From: a virus
Reading direction: 5' to 3' (one strand)
Virus record (IMG/VR): IMGVR_UViG_3300020390_000002
Span: 1-64,000 of that record
DNA: 64,000 nucleotides
The notes under the pieces are model-generated. The model had not been told where the DNA came from, made no database searches, and worked only from the letters and a program-made list of their open reading frames with translations. Numbering within the stretch: the stretch's first letter is position 1; each line of letters starts with the position of its first letter. This document shows, one piece after another, positions 1,785 through 41,564 of this stretch. Position numbers and translations under genes: made by a program.

Positions 1785-3023
1785 TTACAGCGAAATACCG
1801 GCCAGCGTGTGCTTGATGATCGGGAACTCGAACTCGAGCGGGTAACCCAGCGCGTCGGTCGCGTGTTCGGCGCCCGCCTGCTTGTCGATGTCGCGCGACC
1901 CCGGCTTGTAGATCGTCTGTTCGAGCGACTTGATGGTGTTCTTGCAGGACTCGTCGATATGCAGGCGCACCACACCGGAGGCGGTCTCCAGCAGCGAGTT
2001 GACCGCGTTCACGCGGTCGGCGATCGGCGGGTGCTTCTTGCGGTGCTTGATCTTCCTGAAGCCGGCCTGGCGGAACACGTCCAGATCGGACTCACCGCGC
2101 CCGGACTGTCGATAGCTGCCGGCCGGATCGGGGTAGATCGTGACGGCGTCCTGCCAGCGCCAGAACTTGCGATCGAGCGCCGCACAGACGTCGGCCGTGT
2201 TCGAACTCGGCAGATATATCTCGTCGACCACCCACAGCTCGCCGGAGGGCTGCGGCTGGATGATCACGCTCGACATCGGGTCGATGTTGAAGTCCTGCCC
2301 GACCCAGATCGGCAGACCCGGGTTGAAGGGGAACTTGCCGACGTGCTTGGTGCGATCGAACGGGTAGTAGACGCGCCCGGCCATCGACTCGAAGCTCGCC
2401 TCGTACTCCTGACGGAACGTCTTGGGGTCCAGCTCGTTGCGCGCGGCCTCGATCTCCTCCGGCGGCACGAACGGCGACTGTGACGTCGGGAACTGCCAGG
2501 ACTTCCACACGCCCGCCTGCTGGTAATCGCCGCGCTGGCCCATGCGGTAGTGGTCGTAGAGGATGTTGAAGCCCTTGGGCGTGCCCTGAATCAGCGCGCC
2601 GCCGCGGGTGGCCGACAGGGTCGGTCGGATGACCTTGCCCCAGACGTCGGGCTTCATGTCCTGGGCCTCGTCGAGGACCACGTAGTGCAGACCCACGCCG
2701 CGCAGGGTGTCAGGCTTGTCCGCGCCCTTGAGCTCGATCACCGAGCCGTTGATGAGCAGGATGCGCAGGCGCGTGTCGTTGATCTTCTTGATCCAGCGCC
2801 GCGGGATCGCGTCCTTGAGCTCTTCCCACATGATGTCGCGCGCCATCTGATAGGTCGGCGCGACATACCAGATGCGCTGCTTTTTCTTCTTGCCCGCCTT
2901 GTCGATCATGATCACGCGGGCCAAAAACGTCTTGCCGGATCGGCGCCCCGCCACCATCGTCTTGAATCGGTGCGGCGCAGAGTAGACCTCGAGCTGCTTG
3001 GGGTGCAGCGGCAGCGCAGGCAT
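1785..3023 (-). CDS. terL: Terminase large subunit (packaging ATPase/nuclease)
   Basis: The motor that cuts concatemeric phage DNA and pumps it through the portal into the capsid. At 412 residues it is a compact TerL. The ATPase half shows a Walker A motif VAGRRSGKTF at residues 24-33, Walker B VVLDE at 115-119 followed by AQD, and the coupling motif TPKGFN near 148. The RNase H-like nuclease half has acidic residues in the expected order: Asp in VGQDFN (about 244), Asp in YPDPAG, and Asp in HATDALGY near the C-terminus. Its start overlaps the stop of the small-terminase-like gene by one base, so the two are translationally coupled. Confidence 0.96.
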   Translation of the reverse strand: MPALPLHPKQLEVYSAPHRFKTMVAGRRSGKTFLARVIMIDKAGKKKKQRIWYVAPTYQMARDIMWEELKDAIPRRWIKKINDTRLRILLINGSVIELKGADKPDTLRGVGLHYVVLDEAQDMKPDVWGKVIRPTLSATRGGALIQGTPKGFNILYDHYRMGQRGDYQQAGVWKSWQFPTSQSPFVPPEEIEAARNELDPKTFRQEYEASFESMAGRVYYPFDRTKHVGKFPFNPGLPIWVGQDFNIDPMSSVIIQPQPSGELWVVDEIYLPSSNTADVCAALDRKFWRWQDAVTIYPDPAGSYRQSGRGESDLDVFRQAGFRKIKHRKKHPPIADRVNAVNSLLETASGVVRLHIDESCKNTIKSLEQTIYKPGSRDIDKQAGAEHATDALGYPLEFEFPIIKHTLAGISL

Positions 3024-3688
3024 TATCCGGAGATGTCCGCGCCATCCAGGTCGGATTCGCTCAGGTCGTCGAGATCCTCGGCGAGCTTGTCGTCGCTGTA
3101 GTTCTGCAGGTGCTCGGCCAGTTCGTCGTCGTTCTGGATCACGTGCAGGCGCGCGATCTCCTCGGCGGTCAGGCCGCGGATGATCAGCTCCGGCAGCTCC
3201 TCGTCCAGGCCGACATCCTTGTCGAGGCCCAGCAGCGTCCAGCGCTCCTCACGCGCGATCTTGCAGATTTCGATCGCCACCTTGATCGCCTTGAGGTTGG
3301 CCATCGCGGTGGCCATCGGGTTGCCCTTATTTCGGGCCGCGGCCAGCTCGGCCATGCCCAGGCGCGCGAGCATCTGCGCCCACTTGTAGTGCTCTTCCTT
3401 GGTCTCGCGAATCTTGATCAGCAGCTCGGCGCCGTCGTTGGCACCGGCTTCAGCGATACTGTCGCGAACCGCGGTGGCCACATCCTTGGAGCCCTTGACG
3501 ACGCCGCGCTTGGTGAAGCGACGGGACAGCGTCTCGTGACGCACGCCGAAGCGTTCGGCCAGCTGCTTGAGGGTGAACTCGCCGGAGGCCCACAGGGCTT
3601 CGGCTTCTCCCCACTGGGTGGGCGTCAGACGATTCGACTTGGGGGTAGCGATGCGTGCAGCCAGATCATCGCGCTTGGACTTGGCCAT
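3023..3688 (-). CDS. Terminase small subunit-like DNA-binding protein
   Basis: This 221-residue protein has a helix-turn-helix near residues 30-60 (LKQLAERFGVRHETLSRRF), followed by a helical middle and an acidic C-terminal tail. Small terminases recognise the packaging site and load the large subunit; the HTH, the size, and the position directly before terL fit. Small terminases diverge strongly, so a different HTH regulator is possible. The ATG at 3688 is the first in frame. A strong promoter lies about 90 bases upstream. Confidence 0.72.
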   Translation of the reverse strand: MAKSKRDDLAARIATPKSNRLTPTQWGEAEALWASGEFTLKQLAERFGVRHETLSRRFTKRGVVKGSKDVATAVRDSIAEAGANDGAELLIKIRETKEEHYKWAQMLARLGMAELAAARNKGNPMATAMANLKAIKVAIEICKIAREERWTLLGLDKDVGLDEELPELIIRGLTAEEIARLHVIQNDDELAEHLQNYSDDKLAEDLDDLSESDLDGADISG

Positions 3689-4827: not shown

Positions 4828-5085
4828 CTAGTCCTCGATCAGTTGATTGGCATGGGTGGAGATACGCGGGCCGAACGGCTCTTCGCCCAGGCGCGTGAAG
4901 TCCCAGCGCCCGAACAGATCCTTGTCGCAGTCGGCGCATCGATAGCCCACATGCCAGCCGTGATCGATGCGCAGCAGCGTCGGGTGCTTGCAGGTGTTCT
5001 GATGCCACCAGCGCACCAGCCGACGAGCCCAGCGCGCCAGCGCCTGCTTGAACCGCTCCACCGCGAGCCGGATTTTCTCGATCAT
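4828..5085 (-). CDS. Small basic protein with a zinc-knuckle-like motif
   Basis: An 85-residue protein. The N-terminal third is an amphipathic, Arg-rich helix; the centre has a C-x2-C pair (YRCADCDKD) plus an upstream Cys-Lys-His. The ATG at 5085 overlaps the stop of the preceding gene (ATGA), so translation is coupled. The function is unknown. Confidence 0.6.
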   Translation of the reverse strand: MIEKIRLAVERFKQALARWARRLVRWWHQNTCKHPTLLRIDHGWHVGYRCADCDKDLFGRWDFTRLGEEPFGPRISTHANQLIED

Positions 5086-5306
5086 GAGTCGCTGACCTCG
5101 CCCTGATCCTCGACCGACTCGAACCAGACATCGAAGGCCGGGTCGCCGCGCTCGATGCTGTAGCCGAAGGCGCCGTAGGAATCGCGAGTCAGGCCCAGCG
5201 ATGCCTCGTAGCTGTCGTGATGGAAGGTGCGGACGGTGCCGTCCATCGGATACAGCACGGTGCCGGCCGGAATGACCACGTCGTGCTTCAGACGAATTGC
5301 CCTCAT
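5082..5306 (-). CDS. Hypothetical protein, 74 residues
   Basis: A short, probably beta-rich soluble protein. The start at 5306 was chosen for its clear AGGAG site five bases upstream; longer in-frame extensions lack one. The sequence reads like a small barrel (VVIPAGTVLYPMDGTVRTFH). The family is not recognised. Confidence 0.6.
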   Translation of the reverse strand: MRAIRLKHDVVIPAGTVLYPMDGTVRTFHHDSYEASLGLTRDSYGAFGYSIERGDPAFDVWFESVEDQGEVSDS

Positions 5307-5366
5307 GGGGTCTCCTTTCGTGATTCGCGAACTGGAATGGTGGGCGGGACCGGGCACTCCCGATCG

Positions 5367-5600
5367 TCAGTCGTTGCCGACCTCCCCTTGCGGGCCGCCC
5401 GTTGATTTTTCGAACACAGCGATCCGATCGCCCAGCACGACGCTGAGCGAGCACATCAGGCAGTGCTGGCGCCGCAGCAGCCTCCGCTCATCCGGGGCGA
5501 GATCGGCGAACTGATAGGTGCCCAGGAAATAGCCCAGATTGGCTCTTCGCCTATCGAGATCGGCCTTCTCTTCGACGACGCGCTGCTGAAGCGGTGTCAT
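5367..5600 (-). CDS. Hypothetical protein, 77 residues
   Basis: A charged, mostly helical small protein with a C-x2-C pair (HCLMCS) near residue 49. The ATG at 5600 overlaps the stop of the GNAT-like gene (ATGA). Its place inside the modification-type cluster suggests co-expression with it, but no function can be read from the sequence. Confidence 0.55.
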   Translation of the reverse strand: MTPLQQRVVEEKADLDRRRANLGYFLGTYQFADLAPDERRLLRRQHCLMCSLSVVLGDRIAVFEKSTGGPQGEVGND

Positions 5601-6499
5601 GCAGATTCCCCCTGAAGGTTGGTGAGTCGCGACAGATCCAGCGGCTGGTCGTGGCGCTGCCAGTCGAACGCCGACAGCGGCAACCGGGCCGGCAGCTCGC
5701 GGCCGGCATCGGGGTTGGTGTAGCAGCCGTACATCGGCGAGCTGAATACCAGCTGATTGATGTTCTTGAGCAGCTCCGGGGTCGCCATGCCGGCGACATG
5801 CTCGACGCCGTCGTTGTTCTTGCGCCCGGTCTTCTCGGTCGCCGAGTGCTTGTAGTAGAACGCCTTGAGGTCGCGGATCGCCTTCTTGCGCAGCCCCGAC
5901 GGCATGGTCTCGATCTCTTCCAGGATCGCCTCGGAGTCCGCCGGGTGGGCGTCGAAATACCGCGCCATGAGCACGATGCCCTGGTCGTACATCTTCGCCA
6001 GGGTCGGCTCGTTGAACACGAAGCCGGCGCGCATGGCGAAGGGGTTGAACTTGCTCATCGAGGAGGCCAGCTCGGTGTAGCGCTTGCCTTCCATACGACA
6101 GGCCAGGTTGAGCATCCGATAGCTCACGCCGACGCTGCGATAGAGCGTATCGACGACGGTGCGGCTGCAGGTGTTGAAGTTCCGGTTGATGAACTTCGCC
6201 CGGTAGACGTTGGTGACCTTGGTCTCGACGCCCGGCTTGAGCTTGGGGAACATGATGTGGCGCTGGGCGAGCAGCAGACGCGGCACGCACAGAACGACCA
6301 CACCCACCAGCTGCGGGCCATGCTCGGTCTCGAGCATGCAGCGCCAGTAATGCGGGCCGACCAGATTGCCTTCCGCCTTGTAGTGGAAGCGATGCAGTCG
6401 GTCCCAGTCGGCGGTCACGCCGCGCTCGACATACATCCGGTCGAGCAGGGAAAACGGCTGGGCGTCGCCGGAGCGGCGCTCGATGGTGACGTCACGCAT
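5597..6499 (-). CDS. GNAT-fold acyltransferase-like protein
   Basis: A 300-residue protein with a GNAT-like core. A beta strand GVVVLCVP is followed by a Cys-Ser-Arg and an acetyl-CoA-type motif region in which VVDTLYRSVGVSYRML resembles the V-x-P-x-YR-x-x-G motif A, then the SMSKFNPFAMRAGF end typical of GNATs. Family knowledge: GNAT-fold enzymes include phage Mom, which modifies adenine in DNA, and related proteins are reported beside ABC-type ATPases and ParB-fold proteins in phage DNA-modification loci. Here it sits with an ABC ATPase and two ParB-fold genes. A DNA-modification role is an inference. Confidence 0.65.
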   Translation of the reverse strand: MRDVTIERRSGDAQPFSLLDRMYVERGVTADWDRLHRFHYKAEGNLVGPHYWRCMLETEHGPQLVGVVVLCVPRLLLAQRHIMFPKLKPGVETKVTNVYRAKFINRNFNTCSRTVVDTLYRSVGVSYRMLNLACRMEGKRYTELASSMSKFNPFAMRAGFVFNEPTLAKMYDQGIVLMARYFDAHPADSEAILEEIETMPSGLRKKAIRDLKAFYYKHSATEKTGRKNNDGVEHVAGMATPELLKNINQLVFSSPMYGCYTNPDAGRELPARLPLSAFDWQRHDQPLDLSRLTNLQGESA

Positions 6500-6806
6500 C
6501 GGCAGCGATCAGCTGCGCCAGGGTGCGCAACTGGCGCTGCCCGTCGATCATCACCGCCAGCAGCACGGTGTCCCGGGCCTTGTAGATCGGATTGCGGCGA
6601 TAACCGTCGGTGAGCACCACGCCCGAATAGAGCATGCCGCGGGTGTGCATTTCGTCCCACCCGTAGACCAGCGGCGTATGCAGCTTGTCCTCGGCCGTCT
6701 CCGCGCTGCTGCGCTCGTGGCAGTAGCCTCGGAACAGGTTGACGTTGCCGGCGAGCACGAGGATCGGCTTCGGCCGGCGCCACTTCTTCTTCGGGGTGTT
6801 GATCAC
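6492..6806 (-). CDS. Hypothetical protein of the ABC/GNAT cluster
   Basis: A 104-residue basic protein encoded between the ABC ATPase and the GNAT-like gene, overlapping both (4 and 8 bases), so the three are probably made together. It contains a conserved-looking LAGNVNLFRGYC segment and a C-terminal helix. The constant sandwiching suggests a subunit or partner of these proteins. The family is not recognised. Confidence 0.65.
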   Translation of the reverse strand: MINTPKKKWRRPKPILVLAGNVNLFRGYCHERSSAETAEDKLHTPLVYGWDEMHTRGMLYSGVVLTDGYRRNPIYKARDTVLLAVMIDGQRQLRTLAQLIAADA

Positions 6807-7456
6807 GAGCGGCGCTCCGGGTAGGTGGATACAGCGACCCGGTTCTCGTAGTGCTTGGTCACCACGAGGGTCGGGTTGAGATCGAATTCGAGATCGCTGT
6901 GGGTAGTGGCCACCAGCACGGTTGCGCCAGCCTCGCGCGCCATCTTCTGCAGGCAGAAGGCCACGACCTTGGCGGTGTCGCGATCCAGGGTCGCGCCGAA
7001 CTCGTCAGCGACCCAGACGGTCGCGCCGGACTCGATGACCTTGGCGAGCTTGAAGCGATACTTCTGCCCGTCGGAGAGCTGACTCGGCGAGCGCACGAAC
7101 AGATAGGCGTCGTTGAGCCCGGCCATCGACAGCAGACGCACGGCGTCCGCCATGTTCTCGCCCACCTGGTCGATCAGGGGGCGCTCGTCGTATTGCACCT
7201 CGTCGAGCGAGGCGACGCGCAGCCACTCCTGGGTGCGCATCTGACGATGCAGTTCCTTGAGCAGCTGCGACTTGCCCGAGCCGGACTGGCCGGTGATATA
7301 GACCACGTCGCCCTGCAGCACCTCGAGCTTCAGCCCCTCGTAGAGCACGAACTCCTTGTTCGCCAGGCCGATGCCGAAGGCTTCGGCGCACTCGAGCACT
7401 CGCGGGGTGCGATCGACACGCGAGGAGAACGACTTGCTGATGACGTATTCGGTCAT
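6803..7456 (-). CDS. Stand-alone ABC-type ATPase
   Basis: A 217-residue soluble ATPase of the ABC superfamily. It has Walker A GQSGSGKS at residues 56-63, an ABC signature LSDGQ at 127-131, Walker B VWVADEF at 147-153 and a switch His in TTHSDL. No membrane segments and no permease gene are nearby, so it is not a transporter. Such soluble ABC ATPases occur in phage loci with ParB-fold and GNAT proteins; they may power or gate a DNA-acting enzyme. It overlaps ParB-like gene 1 (7453) and the small gene at 6806. Confidence 0.8.
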   Translation of the reverse strand: MTEYVISKSFSSRVDRTPRVLECAEAFGIGLANKEFVLYEGLKLEVLQGDVVYITGQSGSGKSQLLKELHRQMRTQEWLRVASLDEVQYDERPLIDQVGENMADAVRLLSMAGLNDAYLFVRSPSQLSDGQKYRFKLAKVIESGATVWVADEFGATLDRDTAKVVAFCLQKMAREAGATVLVATTHSDLEFDLNPTLVVTKHYENRVAVSTYPERRS

Positions 7457-8115
7457 GCCGGCAGCCCGCTGTGCTTCTCGGCGTACATCAGGAAGGCATC
7501 CAGCCCCTCGGCTTCGGTCTCCTCCTCGATGCGCCCGATGAAGGCGGCCACGATCTTCTGCATGGTCGCGGGGACCCTCTTGAACCCCAGCAGGTCGGTG
7601 ATCGCCACGTCGCCCTTCTTGGCGTTCTCGATCGCGGCTTCCTGGGTGCGGGTCTGGGCATCCACGGAGGCGCCCAGATCGATGACCACCTTCTCGTCGC
7701 TGAAGTCGCCGAGATCGGCGGTCAGAAAGTCCAGCTCGCGCGCGTCGAAGCCGGTGTTGAGCAGGTCGTCGGTCATCGCCAGCGCGGCCAGCTCGGCCTG
7801 CAGCAGCTCGGTGTCGTAATCGGTCGAGGAGACGCGGTTGTCGGCCAGGCGAGCCGCCTTGACCTGGTCGGGGGTGAGATCGTCACGCACGATCACCGGC
7901 ACCTGGGTCATGCCCAGCTTGAGCGCCGCCAGGCGCCGGCCGTGCCCCTTGATGATCACGCCGTCGGCGTCGACCACGATCGGCTGATCCCAGCCGTGCT
8001 CGCTGATCTGCTGGGCGAGCTTCGTGACCTGCAGCTCGTCGTGGATCTTGGCGTTCTTTTCGTAGGGCAGGATGGTCTCGATGTCCCGCGCGACGATCTT
8101 GAGCTTGTCGGTCAT
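7453..8115 (-). CDS. ParB-fold protein 1
   Basis: A 220-residue protein whose first 110 residues match the ParB/Srx fold: LPYEKNAKIH near residue 16, QPIVVDADGVIIKGHGR with the GHGR motif at 57-60, then a VPVIVRDDLTPDQVKAARLADNR helix pair. The C-terminal half lacks the HTH of partition ParB. Phage proteins of this type act as nucleases, NTPases or modification-complex subunits rather than in partition, and no parA is visible. It pairs with a second ParB-fold gene two cistrons upstream. Confidence 0.8.
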   Translation of the reverse strand: MTDKLKIVARDIETILPYEKNAKIHDELQVTKLAQQISEHGWDQPIVVDADGVIIKGHGRRLAALKLGMTQVPVIVRDDLTPDQVKAARLADNRVSSTDYDTELLQAELAALAMTDDLLNTGFDARELDFLTADLGDFSDEKVVIDLGASVDAQTRTQEAAIENAKKGDVAITDLLGFKRVPATMQKIVAAFIGRIEEETEAEGLDAFLMYAEKHSGLPA

Positions 8116-8262
8116 TTACCAGCCCTCGCTGAAATCAAGCGGCTCGCGCTCGTCGACGGGCTCGTATTGCTCGCCGGCCGGGCACTCGTCACAGACGTCG
8201 GAGTTGCAGTCCTCGAAGTTCACGCAGGAAAGGCACTCCGGGAAACGGATTCGGTCATTCAT
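8116..8262 (-). CDS. 48-residue Cys-rich protein
   Basis: A very small protein with five Cys residues in the first 27 positions (C-x2-C-x5-C-x4-C-x2-C), a probable zinc knuckle, followed by an acidic tail. The ATG at 8262 overlaps the stop of ParB-like gene 2 by eight bases, and its TAA abuts the start of ParB-like gene 1, so it lies inside the operon. A purine-rich AGGGG site precedes it. Confidence 0.65.
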   Translation of the reverse strand: MNDRIRFPECLSCVNFEDCNSDVCDECPAGEQYEPVDEREPLDFSEGW

Positions 8263-8926
8263 GGCTTGGCCCCTTCCCCTGGGCCGAATGGGTGATGAGA
8301 TGGAGTAGCGCGTTGCCGGCGTTGATCTCGGCGAGGTCGTCGGTGAACGACTGCGTGCGCATGATCTTTTCGATGACGTCGGTGACCACGTGGGCGTCCT
8401 TGACGGGCACGCGGAACTTGATCGTCTGATGGGTGGGCGGTGCCGTGGGCTCCAGCGGCGCGGTCGTCACCGTGGTGGGCTCATCGGGGAAGCCGATGCT
8501 GTCCAGATCGATGTCGGTGGCGGCGAAGATCGCGTCCACATCGGTCATCTCGATCGGCAGCAGTTCCACCAGGGTGTCGGCGCCCAGCTCACGGAAGATG
8601 TCGGCAAGCAGCAGGCTGTCGTCGGTGCCGTAGCGGCCGTTGTCGATCAGCCCGATCTCCTTCGCCTGTGCGTCGTCGATCGGCCCCAGGTTGATGACCG
8701 GCACGCTGGCCAGACCCATGCGCTCGGCGACCTTGACGCGGTGCGCGCCGCCCAGGATTTCGAGCTGGCCGTCGGCACGCTCGCGCACCAGCACGGGCTT
8801 GAACATGCCGTTGCGACGGATGGACGCCTCGATCTTCACCTCGTTCTCGGGACCGACCACGTTCGGGTTCCACGGATTCGGGTGCAGCCGAGACGGATCG
8901 ATCTTGAGGATTTCGTGTGCGTCCAA
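8255..8926 (-). CDS. ParB-fold protein 2
   Basis: A 223-residue ParB/Srx-fold protein: P-x-x-WNPN near residue 18, FKPVLVRER near 42, the GGAHR motif at 59-63, then the helix pair. The C-terminal half is unrelated to partition ParB. I chose the TTG at 8926 because GGGAG lies eight bases before it; the ATG at 8950 has no ribosome site and adjoins the operator palindrome. It is the first gene of the 8.9-4.3 kb cluster. Confidence 0.8.
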   Translation of the reverse strand: MDAHEILKIDPSRLHPNPWNPNVVGPENEVKIEASIRRNGMFKPVLVRERADGQLEILGGAHRVKVAERMGLASVPVINLGPIDDAQAKEIGLIDNGRYGTDDSLLLADIFRELGADTLVELLPIEMTDVDAIFAATDIDLDSIGFPDEPTTVTTAPLEPTAPPTHQTIKFRVPVKDAHVVTDVIEKIMRTQSFTDDLAEINAGNALLHLITHSAQGKGPSHE

Positions 8927-8944: not shown

Positions 8945-8973
8945 TTGCATTTAAGTCAGTGCTGACTTACTAT
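8945..8973 (+). promoter_or_regulatory. Promoter of the plus-strand operon
   Basis: TTGCAT (8945-8950), 17 bases, TACTAT (8968-8973). The operator palindrome exactly fills the spacer, so a bound protein would block RNA polymerase. The divergent minus-strand operon starts on the other side. Confidence 0.65.
8953..8968. promoter_or_regulatory. Operator palindrome in the divergent promoter region
   Basis: AAGTCAGTGCTGACTT, one mismatch from consensus, lies between the two divergent operons and inside the plus-strand promoter. Confidence 0.8.
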
Positions 8974-10696
8974 GACTGCACGTTTTATCACGAATGAGGC
9001 GCCACAGGCAACAGAAACCGTGAGCAGGATCATCCAAATAGCCCATAATGCGGTCAACGCGATGCTGGTTAAGCCAGACGAGGCCGTACAGCTAGAGGCT
9101 CAGCAGATGCTGAGCTATATGGTTGAGGGTGCAGAGCGTTCCGCGGCCTATCAGGCTGCCGAATGGGATGGTCGGTCGACGTTCTTCGACTTCCGCAACA
9201 ACGGTTTCCCCACTGGCTTCGTCGAGCTGGTCAAGCGTCGTCTGACCAAGCTCGGCTACGAGGTCAAGATCGTGCGCAAGCCCCTGCCGGCCGCGCTCGG
9301 CCCGACCCATCCGGTCGTTGACACGTTTGCGGTCGATCCCCGTTACGAGTATCAGCCGCGCACCGTGGATCTGCTGATCAAGCACGGCATGATGATCGCC
9401 CAGGTCGCCACCGGCGGCGGCAAGTCGCGCATCGCCAACCTGGCCACCGCGCGGATCAAGCGCCCCACCCTGTTCATCACCACCCGCTCGGTGCTCATGC
9501 ACCAGATGAAGGACGCCTTCGCGGCAGCCCTGAAGGTGCGGGCCGAGAACGGCGAGCCGGATCTGCGCAATGCCGAAGTTGGGGTCATGGGCGACAAGGA
9601 ATGGCGCCCGCGCGGCTATATCAACGTCGCGACCGTGCAGACCCTGGCCGCGCGGCTGCGCGAGCCCAATTTCGTGATCTCTTCGAAGAAGAAGGGCAAG
9701 GACGGCAAGCCGTTGAGCTCCGAAGAGCGCGAAGCCCTGGGCGTGGCGCAATACCGGCGCATGAAAAAGCGTCGCGAGGAGACCCTGCGGCTGCTGAGCC
9801 TGTTCCAGTTCGTGATCGCCGAGGAAGCCCATGAGGCCGGCGGCGACACCTTCTTCCAGATCATGCGCCACTGCACCCGCGCCCACTACCGGCTGGCGCT
9901 GACCGCGACGCCGTTCATGCGCGCGGACGCAGAATCGAACATGCGCCTGATGGCCTCCTGCGGGCCGATCGGCATCCGGATCACCGAGAAGCTGCTTATC
10001 GATCGCGGCATCCTCGCGACCCCGAGCTTTCGCACCATCGTGACCGGCTACGCGCCCGACAAGGACGCCCTCGCCCTCTACGAGAAACCCAAGCCCGGCA
10101 AGACGCGCATCTCGACGGTGCTGGGCAACACGTCCTCCTACCAGCGGGCCACCAAGCTCGGCATCGATTTCAACCTGGCGCGCAACCGCGCGATCGTCGG
10201 CGAGTGCGTGCGCGCGCGCCGCTACGGCCTGCCCGTGATCGTGCTCGTGAACCACACGGTCCACGGCAAGATCGTGCTGGCGATGCTGGAAGCGGCCGGC
10301 CTGAACGCGCAGTTCATCTGGGGCGACGACGACAGCGCTGCGCGCCGGGCTGCCCTGCTGGGCCTGGCCGGCGGCATGCTCGATGTCGTGATCGGCTCCA
10401 CGATCCTCGACGTGGGCGTCGATGTGCCCAGTGTCGGGATGATCATTCTGGCCGGCGGCGGCAAGGCTGAAGTGGCCCTGCGTCAGCGCATCGGCCGCGC
10501 GCTGCGCGAGAAGAAGGACGGCCGCCCCAATCGCGCCTTCATCGTCGACTTCGCCGACGACTTCAATATCCACCTGCGCCGGCACGCCATGACCCGACGC
10601 GCAATCGTCGCGGACACCCCCGGCTTCGTCGAGAACCAACTGCCTGTCGGGGCGGACTTCGACTTCACCGGCTTCGAATTACAGGAGATCGCATGA
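8972..10696 (+). CDS. UvsW-like superfamily 2 DNA helicase
   Basis: A 574-residue (maximal) helicase resembling T4 UvsW, which remodels stalled forks, R-loops and branched DNA. The N-terminal domain has an EWDGR segment like the UvsW NWDGR. Then follow motif I ATGGGKSR (146-153), a DEAH-type motif II written AEEAHE (about 283-288), motif III LTATPF and the C-terminal motif VI RQRIGRALRE. The start is uncertain: the first ATG (8972) overlaps the promoter -10 and has no ribosome site. The ATG at 9107 (residue 46) follows AGAGG and is the best-supported alternative, though a start at 9062 would keep more of the UvsW-like N-terminus. The gene overlaps the transglycosylase downstream (ATGA). Confidence 0.85.
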   Translation: MTARFITNEAPQATETVSRIIQIAHNAVNAMLVKPDEAVQLEAQQMLSYMVEGAERSAAYQAAEWDGRSTFFDFRNNGFPTGFVELVKRRLTKLGYEVKIVRKPLPAALGPTHPVVDTFAVDPRYEYQPRTVDLLIKHGMMIAQVATGGGKSRIANLATARIKRPTLFITTRSVLMHQMKDAFAAALKVRAENGEPDLRNAEVGVMGDKEWRPRGYINVATVQTLAARLREPNFVISSKKKGKDGKPLSSEEREALGVAQYRRMKKRREETLRLLSLFQFVIAEEAHEAGGDTFFQIMRHCTRAHYRLALTATPFMRADAESNMRLMASCGPIGIRITEKLLIDRGILATPSFRTIVTGYAPDKDALALYEKPKPGKTRISTVLGNTSSYQRATKLGIDFNLARNRAIVGECVRARRYGLPVIVLVNHTVHGKIVLAMLEAAGLNAQFIWGDDDSAARRAALLGLAGGMLDVVIGSTILDVGVDVPSVGMIILAGGGKAEVALRQRIGRALREKKDGRPNRAFIVDFADDFNIHLRRHAMTRRAIVADTPGFVENQLPVGADFDFTGFELQEIA

Positions 10697-40057: not shown

Positions 40058-40304
40058 AACTCGGCCCGATTTGGGTTGCGATACGGGCGATCGTGTCGTC
40101 GACCAACAGGCGAACGTCAGCCGGGATGCCGGCATCGTTCATCGCCGCGAGACGCGCAAACGCCTCGGAGAGAATGTCGCGATGCTTTTCCAGGCGCTCG
40201 ATCTCGCGCTCGGCGCGCATCATGTCGGCGATGACGTTCTCGAGGGTGCGCTTGGCACCCTCGACCTCACGTCGCGAGAGCTGCTGCTTGCGGATCGTAT
40301 TCAT
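40023..40304 (-). CDS. Coiled-coil protein, 93 residues
   Basis: A long helix with heptads (TLENVIADMMRAEREIERLEK) and an acidic tail ending RPGTNEEESE. The ATG overlaps the stop of the 40301 gene. Unknown. Confidence 0.6.
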   Translation of the reverse strand: MNTIRKQQLSRREVEGAKRTLENVIADMMRAEREIERLEKHRDILSEAFARLAAMNDAGIPADVRLLVDDTIARIATQIGPSYRPGTNEEESE

Positions 40305-40885
40305 GCGGCCTTGTTGGTGATGCCGAGCATCGCGTTGATGTCGATCACCTTCATCGGCAGATTGACCGTCGGCGGGGCGTCCTCCGGCGGCATGAAGCGC
40401 TCTGCTTCCGGCCACAGGGCCAGGAGCTGGCTCGTCGTCTTGACGGCGTGAAGCAGGTCGTAGAGCCCGCGATCGATCTGTTCGATCTGCTTTTTGCATT
40501 CAACCAACCGTCCGACAGCCTTCGAATAGGCTTCGAATGCCCGCTGCTGCTTGGCGGTTTTCAGGGTCTCGCCGTCACCGCCCTCGGACCTCAGCCAGGC
40601 GGCGGGAAGACGCAGCCGCTTGCCGTCCATCCTGACGTAGGTGCCCTCACGGTCGCTGCTGGTGAGAAAGACGCGGAAGCCGTCGTGGCTCACGAAGAAA
40701 TCCTCGGGCACCGATCTGAAGGCGTCCAGCCGGTCGTCAAGCAAGATGTCGCGAAGGGCGATTACCGCCTTGTTCACGTCGCGGCCGGCTTTCTCCCGCT
40801 CTTTCGTGGCGGGCGCATCCTGCAGCGCCGCGCGCTTGATGGAACTGCGCAGGTTATCGCTGAGATTCTTGGATTTACGGGCCAT
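40301..40885 (-). CDS. Nmad5-like phage protein
   Basis: A 194-residue basic helical protein. A C-terminal sequence with LLALWPEAERFMP, then LPMKVIDINAMLGI resembles a phage family with an AWPEG-x-x-FF, then LNAMLGI ending (nucleotide-modification-associated domain 5, recalled from memory). Family knowledge: its partners are thought to act on modified nucleotides, but the reaction is unknown. AAGGAG lies nine bases before the ATG. Confidence 0.6.
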   Translation of the reverse strand: MARKSKNLSDNLRSSIKRAALQDAPATKEREKAGRDVNKAVIALRDILLDDRLDAFRSVPEDFFVSHDGFRVFLTSSDREGTYVRMDGKRLRLPAAWLRSEGGDGETLKTAKQQRAFEAYSKAVGRLVECKKQIEQIDRGLYDLLHAVKTTSQLLALWPEAERFMPPEDAPPTVNLPMKVIDINAMLGITNKAA

Positions 40886-40958: not shown

Positions 40959-41564
40959 TCAGTGCGTCCCTGCCACCTTCGCCAGCTCCATGTCGTCCTG
41001 CTGCAGGCTGTGCCGCATGGTGTCGAGCATTTCGACCCGCTGATCGAGCGCCGTTACCGACGGCCGGCAGAGCATCGCTCGGCATCTATTCAGATCGAAT
41101 GCGACGCCACGCACGATAGCGTTGAACTGCGCCATGTAGGCCGTGTTGGGCTCGGCCTTGCCCTCTTCGGCAGCGATCGGTATGCCCGGCTGCAGGATCA
41201 AGACGCCGCCGAAATAACGGTCGGTCAGGTTCAGACAGGCGGTGACGTATTTCGACACGATCACTTCCATGACGCCGGACGTGCAGTTGCGGGCGTCCGC
41301 GAGCGTGTACGCGATCAGGTCGAGCGGCGTGCGGTCGCTGATGAACACGCCGCCGGCCTCTTTGAACAGCTCAGTGAAGTGCGCCAGCAACGCCTGTTGC
41401 AGCAACATTCGAGATGCGAACGGGATCGGCCGATCGACAGGAATCCCCATGACTTGCGCGATGGCGCCGACATTGGTTTCGATGAACGGGATGTCTGCCA
41501 GCTCCGCGTAAGCCCTGGCGAGTGTGGTTTTGCCCGTGCGGTGGGCGCCGGTGAGTCCGAGCAT
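40959..41564 (-). CDS. P-loop kinase
   Basis: A 201-residue P-loop protein with Walker A GAHRTGKT (residues 6-13), a FISDRTPLDLIAYTL segment typical of the AAA_28/NadR-like group, and a C-terminal helical lid. Such phage kinases phosphorylate nucleosides, deoxynucleotides or modified bases; the substrate is not evident. It shares an operon with the Nmad5-like and exonuclease genes. AGGAGG lies eight bases before the ATG. Two operators and a promoter lie upstream. Confidence 0.75.
   Translation of the reverse strand: MLGLTGAHRTGKTTLARAYAELADIPFIETNVGAIAQVMGIPVDRPIPFASRMLLQQALLAHFTELFKEAGGVFISDRTPLDLIAYTLADARNCTSGVMEVIVSKYVTACLNLTDRYFGGVLILQPGIPIAAEEGKAEPNTAYMAQFNAIVRGVAFDLNRCRAMLCRPSVTALDQRVEMLDTMRHSLQQDDMELAKVAGTH

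What the first reader, a model, noticed from the sequence alone, without database searches (positions are those of the whole stretch)
4828..8926. Cluster of two ParB-fold proteins, an ABC ATPase and a GNAT-like protein
Overlapping genes encode ParB-fold protein 2, a Cys knuckle, ParB-fold protein 1, a soluble ABC ATPase, a small partner and a GNAT-fold protein. Such combinations occur in phage loci for hypermodified bases; Mom of phage Mu is a GNAT-fold DNA modifier. With the Nmad5-like gene, P-loop kinase and MazG-like genes elsewhere here, a modification of DNA used to escape restriction is a reasonable hypothesis.
Basis: inference. Interest (0 to 1): 0.72.

Follow-up and report, generated by a model that had tools for sequence, protein, structure and literature searches.

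The report
Phage ParB–ABC–GNAT DNA-marking gene module
A set of neighbouring phage genes, conserved in hundreds of plasmid-like phages of E. coli, Klebsiella and other bacteria, very probably adds an unknown chemical group to the phage's own DNA, because its relatives sit exactly where phage Mu keeps its DNA-modifying enzyme.

Summary
The cluster is real and conserved: helicase (divergent) | ParB, Cys-knuckle, ParB, ABC ATPase, small protein, GNAT. In ten named phages and in every sufficiently long contig among 80 IMG/VR relatives the four main genes keep this order in front of TerS–TerL–portal. About 900 PLSDB plasmids and 249 of 5,426 complete E. coli genomes carry it. The 300-aa protein, called "ABC transporter" in databases, is a GNAT (AlphaFold pLDDT 90; homologous to a clear GNAT domain, E 1.4e-9). 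ABC plus GNAT are a split form of an ABC–GNAT fusion found in more than 590 viral contigs, usually preceded by a ParB or by the ParB's C-terminal tail alone. Three contexts point to DNA modification. In Mu-like phages the fusion sits at the right end, 30–35 kb from the transposase, where Mu has mom; no Mom was found there. In tailed phages ParB+ABC–GNAT fills the slot before the terminase that ParB–DNA-methyltransferase fills elsewhere. A formyltransferase, or aspartate decarboxylase plus CoA-transferase, often follows. Iyer et al. (2013) already predicted a GNAT–ABC nucleobase-modification system, so this is a split, two-ParB variant of a predicted, untested kind. It is not a Mom-family member. 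The product is unknown.

The parts
8255..8926 (-). ParB-fold protein 1 of the operon (223 aa from TTG 8926; ATG at 8950 possible); ParB_N plus about 110 aa, no HTH domain
   Evidence: PF02195 E 4.3e-11, phrog_723 E 1.5e-58; box II G59 G60 H62 R63 at least 85% conserved in 54 homologues
8116..8262 (-). 48-aa Cys-rich (CxxC) protein, optional part
   Evidence: sequence; homologues at the same place in L008, L009, L033, L037, L079
7453..8115 (-). ParB-fold protein 2 of the operon (220 aa), the type also found fused to DNA methyltransferases
   Evidence: phrog_930 E 9.7e-81, phrog_498 DNA methyltransferase (ParB part) E 4e-38; PADLOC MTase_II ParB part E 8e-25; PDB Noc/ParB E 4e-5
6803..7456 (-). 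soluble ABC ATPase (217 aa): Walker A K62, signature LSDGQ 127-131, Walker B D151/E152, H-loop H186
   Evidence: PF00005 E 1.3e-11; motifs invariant in 10 homologues; homologous to the ABC half of ABC-GNAT fusions, hhalign E 1.6e-26; no transmembrane segment in the module
6492..6806 (-). 104-aa protein in the ABC/GNAT gap, a variable slot
   Evidence: no family; the slot differs or is empty in relatives
5597..6499 (-). GNAT-fold acyltransferase (300 aa), predicted catalytic subunit; signature HYK (39-41) and motif A R121-x-x-G124
   Evidence: phrog_886 E 2.1e-114; AlphaFold pLDDT 90.4; Foldseek hits to acetyltransferases incl. NAT10/TmcA; homologous to the GNAT half of ABC-GNAT fusions, hhalign E 1.4e-9
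5367..5600 (-). 77-aa helical protein, crAss001_48 family, translationally coupled to the GNAT gene; probably a passenger
   Evidence: PF21825 E 1e-12; no counterpart by tblastn in the named relatives
8972..10696 (+). divergent UvsW-like SF2 helicase, conserved left border of the locus
   Evidence: PF04851, PF00271, PF21241; present at this border in most relatives
3023..3688 (-). small terminase-like gene, conserved right border
   Evidence: synteny
1785..3023 (-). large terminase
   Evidence: synteny with annotated terminases

Best explanation
The module makes a hypermodified base in the phage's own DNA before packaging. The GNAT subunit transfers an acyl-type group, from an acyl-CoA or another activated donor, to an exocyclic amine of a DNA base (adenine or cytosine). 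The ABC ATPase is its dedicated motor or switch; in most relatives the two are one polypeptide. The ParB-fold proteins act as nucleotide-switched DNA clamps or docking factors that put the enzyme on DNA and perhaps set sequence choice, as ParB domains appear to do for phage DNA methyltransferases. The mark probably protects DNA from restriction. Shown: gene order, conservation, folds, homology, positional replacement of Mom and of ParB-methyltransferases. Inferred: that the target is DNA, the acyl chemistry, the base, the roles of ABC and ParB, and the anti-restriction benefit.
For: (1) Position of mom: Porphyromonas Mu-like phage PP754929 (transposase, MuB, Gam) ends with a 42-aa tail protein, ABC-GNAT and a formyltransferase, where Mu ends with com-mom. 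Ten of 20 further records with the fusion have a Mu-type transposase (one of them a weak match); by coordinates it lies about 30-35 kb upstream on the same strand (Mu 33 kb). The Mom profile finds Mom in Mu and two relatives but not in the virus records that carry the fusion. (2) ParB-N6/N4-methyltransferase precedes TerS-TerL in P8625, the slot that ParB+ABC-GNAT fills in Pmp13 and many contigs. (3) Directly after ABC-GNAT: a formyltransferase in 46/71 viral and 47/79 bacterial loci, 110/119 with the HPSLLP-type motif, or aspartate decarboxylase plus CoA-transferase III. (4) Downstream genes include large terminases of four families. (5) GNAT fold, homology to the fusion, catalytic motifs conserved. 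(6) DpdB, a ParB-like ATPase, takes part in DNA base insertion in Dpd systems (PMC12839542). (7) Earlier prediction of this kind (PMC7824862).
Against: No modified base has been measured. The mom-locus and formyltransferase evidence comes from the fused family; in the window's own clade the module is always next to the terminase and has no formyltransferase or PanD beside it. The GNAT profile match covers about 90 residues, and the window protein has about 140 extra C-terminal residues of unknown role. GNATs mostly acylate proteins and small molecules. Late-gene position alone could explain both the mom-like and the terminase-adjacent placements.
Confidence: 0.72

Rival explanations
1. A DNA-handling complex for packaging or genome compaction: ParB clamps plus a small SMC-like ABC ATPase act on DNA at the terminase, and the GNAT acetylates a protein partner as a switch (compare ParB-SMC loading and cohesin acetylation).
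For: In the window's clade the module is always beside TerS-TerL-portal; fused relatives lie beside large terminases of four families; ParB folds are DNA clamps and ABC ATPases include SMC (established knowledge).
Against: The ABC protein is 217 aa with no room for a coiled coil; fused relatives sit far from the terminase at the right end of Mu-like phages (terminase 14.9-16.5 kb, module 33.2-34.9 kb in PP754929); formyltransferase, PanD and CoA-transferase neighbours have no packaging role.
Confidence: 0.12
2. A host-takeover or anti-defence protein modifier: the GNAT acylates host proteins such as RNA polymerase.
For: Phage GNATs that modify host proteins exist (Rac of phiKMV-like phages, PMC7824862); anti-defence genes such as Tad2 sit in the ABC-GNAT gap of Rhizobium phages.
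Against: Does not explain the ParB/ABC coupling, the replacement of mom, or the slot shared with ParB-methyltransferases.
Confidence: 0.08
3. Plasmid partition (ParB) genes of a phage-plasmid with an unrelated ABC transporter, as database annotations suggest.
For: About 900 PLSDB plasmids carry the module; annotations read partition protein and ABC transporter.
Against: No membrane partner or transmembrane segment; no ParA in the module and no HTH domain found on either ParB; Rhizobium relatives have a separate ParA gene; relatives in Mu-like phages need no partition.
Confidence: 0.05
4. The cluster belongs to a bacterial or inter-phage defence system carried by the phage.
For: The ABC gene gives PADLOC hits (mad3 E 9e-14).
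Against: The mad3 hit is limited to the ABC half (profile 257-326 of 374), with a different architecture; the GNAT and the small protein hit nothing in PADLOC; no nuclease effector is conserved in the module.
Confidence: 0.03

Closest known systems
GNAT coupled to an ABC ATPase, predicted acyl nucleobase-modification system (Iyer et al. 2013, as summarised in PMC7824862; Tenacibaculum phage pT24; database name 'MK0520 / ABC-type ATPase fused to a predicted acyltransferase domain')
   Same: Homologous ABC (hhalign E 1.6e-26) and GNAT (E 1.4e-9) parts; phage setting; same predicted role
   Different: Here ABC and GNAT are separate genes with a variable gene between them, the GNAT carries about 140 extra residues, and there are two ParB genes
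Mom of phage Mu (N6-adenine modification)
   Same: GNAT fold, late phage gene; fused relatives of the window's proteins occupy the same genome position in Mu-like phages; an HY motif near the N-terminus of the domain appears in both (visual lead only)
   Different: No significant sequence or profile match (PF25680, hhalign); Mom has no ABC or ParB partner and is preceded by Com
ParB-fused phage DNA methyltransferases (phrog_498 type, e.g. Verrucomicrobia phage P8625)
   Same: Same ParB subfamily as the window's 7453-8115 protein, same slot before the terminase
   Different: Catalyst is a SAM-dependent N6/N4 methyltransferase, not ABC+GNAT
Dpd 7-deazaguanine DNA modification (DpdB, a ParB-like ATPase)
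   Same: A ParB-fold NTPase serves a DNA base modifier
   Different: Base exchange by a TGT-type enzyme; no ABC-GNAT
NAT10/TmcA RNA cytidine acetyltransferases
   Same: GNAT fold coupled to a P-loop ATPase acting on nucleic acid; among the Foldseek hits (E 1.6e-3, prob. 0.99)
   Different: Helicase-type ATPase, RNA substrate; low TM-score, not close homologues

Membership tests
ABC-GNAT coupled base-modification family | ABC ATPase domain homologous to the fusion, with intact Walker A/B, signature and H-loop | tested here: met
   hhalign E 1.6e-26; motifs invariant
ABC-GNAT coupled base-modification family | GNAT domain homologous to the fusion's, with motif A and the (H)HY signature | tested here: met
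   hhalign E 1.4e-9; HYL-type motif in 219/221 fusions, HYK in 90/90 split proteins
ABC-GNAT coupled base-modification family | ABC and GNAT in one polypeptide | tested here: not met
   separate genes in the window and all its close relatives; split forms also occur next to ParB in Streptococcus and Oenococcus phages
ABC-GNAT coupled base-modification family | modified nucleobase in DNA | not testable with these tools
   needs LC-MS; never shown for any member that I found
Mom family (PF25680) | match to the Mom profile | tested here: not met
   no hit for 42 homologues at E up to 1, none in the window's record, while Mu gives 2.8e-77
Mom family (PF25680) | GNAT fold | tested here: met
Mom family (PF25680) | preceded by the translational activator com | not tested
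   the Cys-rich 48-aa gene is not next to the GNAT; no Com profile was searched
ParABS partition system | ParB_N domain with NTP-binding box II | tested here: met
ParABS partition system | ParB HTH (parS-binding) domain and a cognate adjacent ParA | tested here: not met
   only ParB_N is hit; no ParA in the cluster or its immediate neighbours
ABC transporter | transmembrane partner domain | tested here: not met
   no transmembrane domain in the module; highest 19-residue hydropathy 1.64
Known defence systems (PADLOC) | full-length match of the GNAT or of the whole set | tested here: not met

The most novel reading that the evidence does not exclude
A large uncharacterised class of ParB-guided, ABC-driven GNAT enzymes installs N-acyl-type bases in phage DNA, with the acyl group varied by accessory enzymes (formyltransferase; aspartate decarboxylase plus CoA-transferase). 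The window's split two-ParB form marks the DNA of the whole SSU5-type phage-plasmid group found in about 5% of complete E. coli genomes.
Probability: 0.45. Interest if true: 0.8.

Novelty: new variant of a known kind. Interest (0 to 1): 0.6.

Why it matters
If true, a very common group of phage-plasmids (about 900 PLSDB plasmids, 249 of 5,426 complete E. coli genomes) carries DNA with an unrecognised base modification. That would affect restriction, CRISPR targeting, native long-read base calling and spread of these plasmids. The accessory enzymes give concrete guesses about the chemical group (formylated or beta-alanyl-like), and E. coli K-12 phages such as PhiR41_1 make the prediction testable at once. 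It would also correct wide misannotation ('ABC transporter', 'partition protein').

Tried and rejected
Mom membership: PF25680 scans and hhalign with six Mu-type Mom sequences gave nothing significant; the Mom alignment was thin, so hhalign had little power. PDB sequence search with the GNAT alignment found no relative. A first count of 'ParB directly upstream' in 182/233 loci was wrong: iteration had drawn in short proteins matching only the ParB's C-terminal tail. Corrected: full ParB 102/233, tail-only protein 77/233. An 'anti-defence island' idea from Tad2 in the ABC–GNAT gap was dropped: only 2 of 98 slot genes are Tad2, and the slots also hold PNKP phosphatase, thioredoxin and GIY-YIG genes. 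The 77-aa PF21825 protein gave no PDB match. PADLOC mad3 was rejected on architecture. Javan174's 'DNA modification methylase' turned out to be ParB–DUF4417, so it is not counted as methyltransferase evidence. Iyer et al. 2013 is not held in the library, so whether it reports the ParB or formyltransferase link is unknown. A single-sequence viral scan found nothing; the alignment scan did.
Full report
The window is the first 64 kb of a 91,335-base IMG/VR virus record. On the minus strand, between a divergent UvsW-like helicase (8972–10696) and the terminase genes (TerS 3023–3688, TerL 1785–3023), lie ParB 8255–8926, a 48-aa Cys-rich protein 8116–8262, ParB 7453–8115, ABC ATPase 6803–7456, a 104-aa protein 6492–6806 and a 300-aa protein 5597–6499. 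Stop and start codons overlap or abut throughout. Pfam identifies the two ParB_N domains and the ABC domain but not the 300-aa protein; PHROGs puts the latter in phrog_886, labelled 'ABC transporter ATP-binding subunit', although it has no ABC motifs.

The locus is conserved. The 300-aa protein has 30 relatives in the phage collection, among them SSU5, Klebsiella ST13-OXA48phi12.3, nickie, Stenotrophomonas ANB28 and Rhizobium RHEph10, all at 42–52% identity. In these, and in every sufficiently long contig among 80 IMG/VR relatives, the order is helicase(–) | ParB, ParB, ABC, GNAT, TerS, TerL, portal. The same protein is found in 905 PLSDB plasmids, mostly of Enterobacteriaceae and Acinetobacter and mostly near 110 kb, and the SSU5 version in 249 of 5,426 complete E. 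coli genomes, never on a chromosome. The stretch between ABC and GNAT is a variable slot.

The 300-aa protein is a GNAT. An AlphaFold model from 42 sequences has pLDDT 90 and pTM 0.83. Its PDB matches are led by acetyltransferases, including NAT10/TmcA and arylalkylamine N-acetyltransferases, although E-values stay just above 0.001. Acetyltransf_10 is the top Pfam family among its homologues, at weak E-values. The ABC protein keeps Walker A, LSDGQ, DE and H-loop in ten homologues, and no protein of the module has a transmembrane segment.

Distant relatives explain the pairing. Searching with the ABC protein finds phages in which one polypeptide holds both an ABC and a GNAT domain: Pasteurella Pmp13, Gordonia Jace and AnClar, Nonlabens P12024S, Porphyromonas phages. 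Profile comparison links the window's ABC to the fusion's ABC half (E 1.6e-26) and the window's GNAT to its GNAT half (E 5e-8; E 1.4e-9 with larger alignments). The fusion's GNAT domain is unambiguous: 263 PDB chains at E below 0.001 by fold, with acetyltransferases filling the listed top 50, and Pfam Acetyltransf_1 at 1e-8 in Jace. At least 593–595 viral contigs and 301 bacterial genome stretches encode the fusion. So the window holds a split form.

ParB is the usual partner. In three sets of 80 loci (viral near Pmp13, viral near AnClar, bacterial genomes; a few contigs are shared between sets) a full ParB gene lies directly upstream of the fusion in 56/77, 37/76 and 9/80 loci. A further 23 and 54 loci in the last two sets have instead a 41–81-aa protein that resembles only the C-terminal tail of those ParBs. 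The tail is therefore the most constant partner of the fused enzyme in those sets; the window's ParBs do not match it.

What the enzyme acts on is suggested by position. First, Porphyromonas phage PP754929 is Mu-like (transposase, MuB, Gam), and its right end after the tail genes carries a 42-aa gene, the fusion and a formyltransferase. In Mu that place holds com and mom. Among 20 further records with the fusion, nine have a Mu-type transposase C-domain over the family cut-off and one a weak match (two also match the Mu DDE domain). From the coordinates it lies about 30–35 kb upstream of the fusion on the same strand, as in Mu (33 kb); for the bacterial genomes this assumes that the contig numbers correspond. 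The Mom profile finds Mom in Mu and two relatives but in none of 13 virus records with the fusion nor in PP754929. The fusion has thus taken the place of a known DNA modifier.

Second, the ParB subfamily of the 7453–8115 protein is elsewhere fused to N6/N4 DNA methyltransferases, and such a fusion precedes TerS–TerL in Verrucomicrobia phage P8625, the same slot as ParB+ABC–GNAT in Pmp13. Among 94 genes downstream of the fusion in set A, 26 match Terminase_6, 11 Terminase_3, 6 TerL_ATPase and 3 GpA, so the association is not inherited with one terminase.

Third, the next gene after the fusion is a formyltransferase in 46 of 71 and 47 of 79 loci with room in sets B and C, with the HPSLLP-type motif in 110 of 119, or an aspartate decarboxylase plus a CoA-transferase III homologue in Jace and four other loci. 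Such enzymes suit the making or tailoring of an acyl group. The window's clade has neither beside the module.

Mechanism. Shown here: conservation, fold, intact motifs, homology, and positional replacement. Inferred: the GNAT transfers an acyl-type group to an exocyclic base amine; the ABC ATPase drives or gates it; ParB proteins, an NTP-switch and DNA-clamp fold (PMC12704722), load it on DNA. DpdB, a ParB-like ATPase in 7-deazaguanine insertion, is a precedent (PMC12839542). A GNAT–ABC nucleobase-modification system was predicted by Iyer et al. 2013 (summarised in PMC7824862; the original is not held). The general kind is therefore predicted already. New here, as far as the held literature shows, are the split two-ParB form as a core module of SSU5-type phage-plasmids, the mom-locus replacement, the tail partner and the accessory enzymes.

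The Nmad5 gene (40301–40885) and the neighbouring P-loop gene (40959–41564) are real, but nothing ties them to this cluster.

Noticed in passing
window 40301-40885 and 40959-41564 (-): Nmad5 protein (PF18757 E 7.6e-11) beside a P-loop kinase-like protein (AAA_28): a possible second, independent nucleotide-modification pair.
   Followed up: partly
window 5367-5600 (-): 77-aa helical crAss001_48-family protein (PF21825) coupled to the GNAT gene; the slot after the GNAT holds small winged-helix-like proteins in some relatives.
   Followed up: partly
L008:7393-7695: Tad2-like (Thoeris anti-defence 2) gene inserted between ABC and GNAT in Rhizobium phage RHEph10.
   Followed up: partly
L096:4441-7206; L135, L137, L171, L174: Four-gene cassette ParB / ABC-GNAT / aspartate decarboxylase / short CoA-transferase III homologue, suggesting a beta-alanine-derived acyl group.
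   Followed up: partly
L379:33155-33283 and many L2xx/L3xx loci: A 41-81-aa protein like the C-terminal tail of ABC-GNAT-associated ParBs stands alone before ABC-GNAT in 77 loci without a full ParB nearby (the gene at this place in PP754929 is annotated 'acr candidate protein').
   Followed up: partly
L375:4492-5601: Streptococcus phage Javan174 'DNA modification methylase' is ParB fused to DUF4417, in the same pre-terminase region.
   Followed up: partly
SSU5-type records (L001, L002, L005): Misannotation: the GNAT is called 'ABC transporter ATP-binding subunit' and the ParB proteins 'DNA methyltransferase' or 'partition protein'.
   Followed up: yes
window 10700-63500: RtcB ligase, uracil-DNA-glycosylase, both ribonucleotide reductase subunits and thymidylate synthase are encoded in the window (exact genes not assigned); whether the last makes hydroxymethyl-dUMP was not examined.
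   Followed up: no
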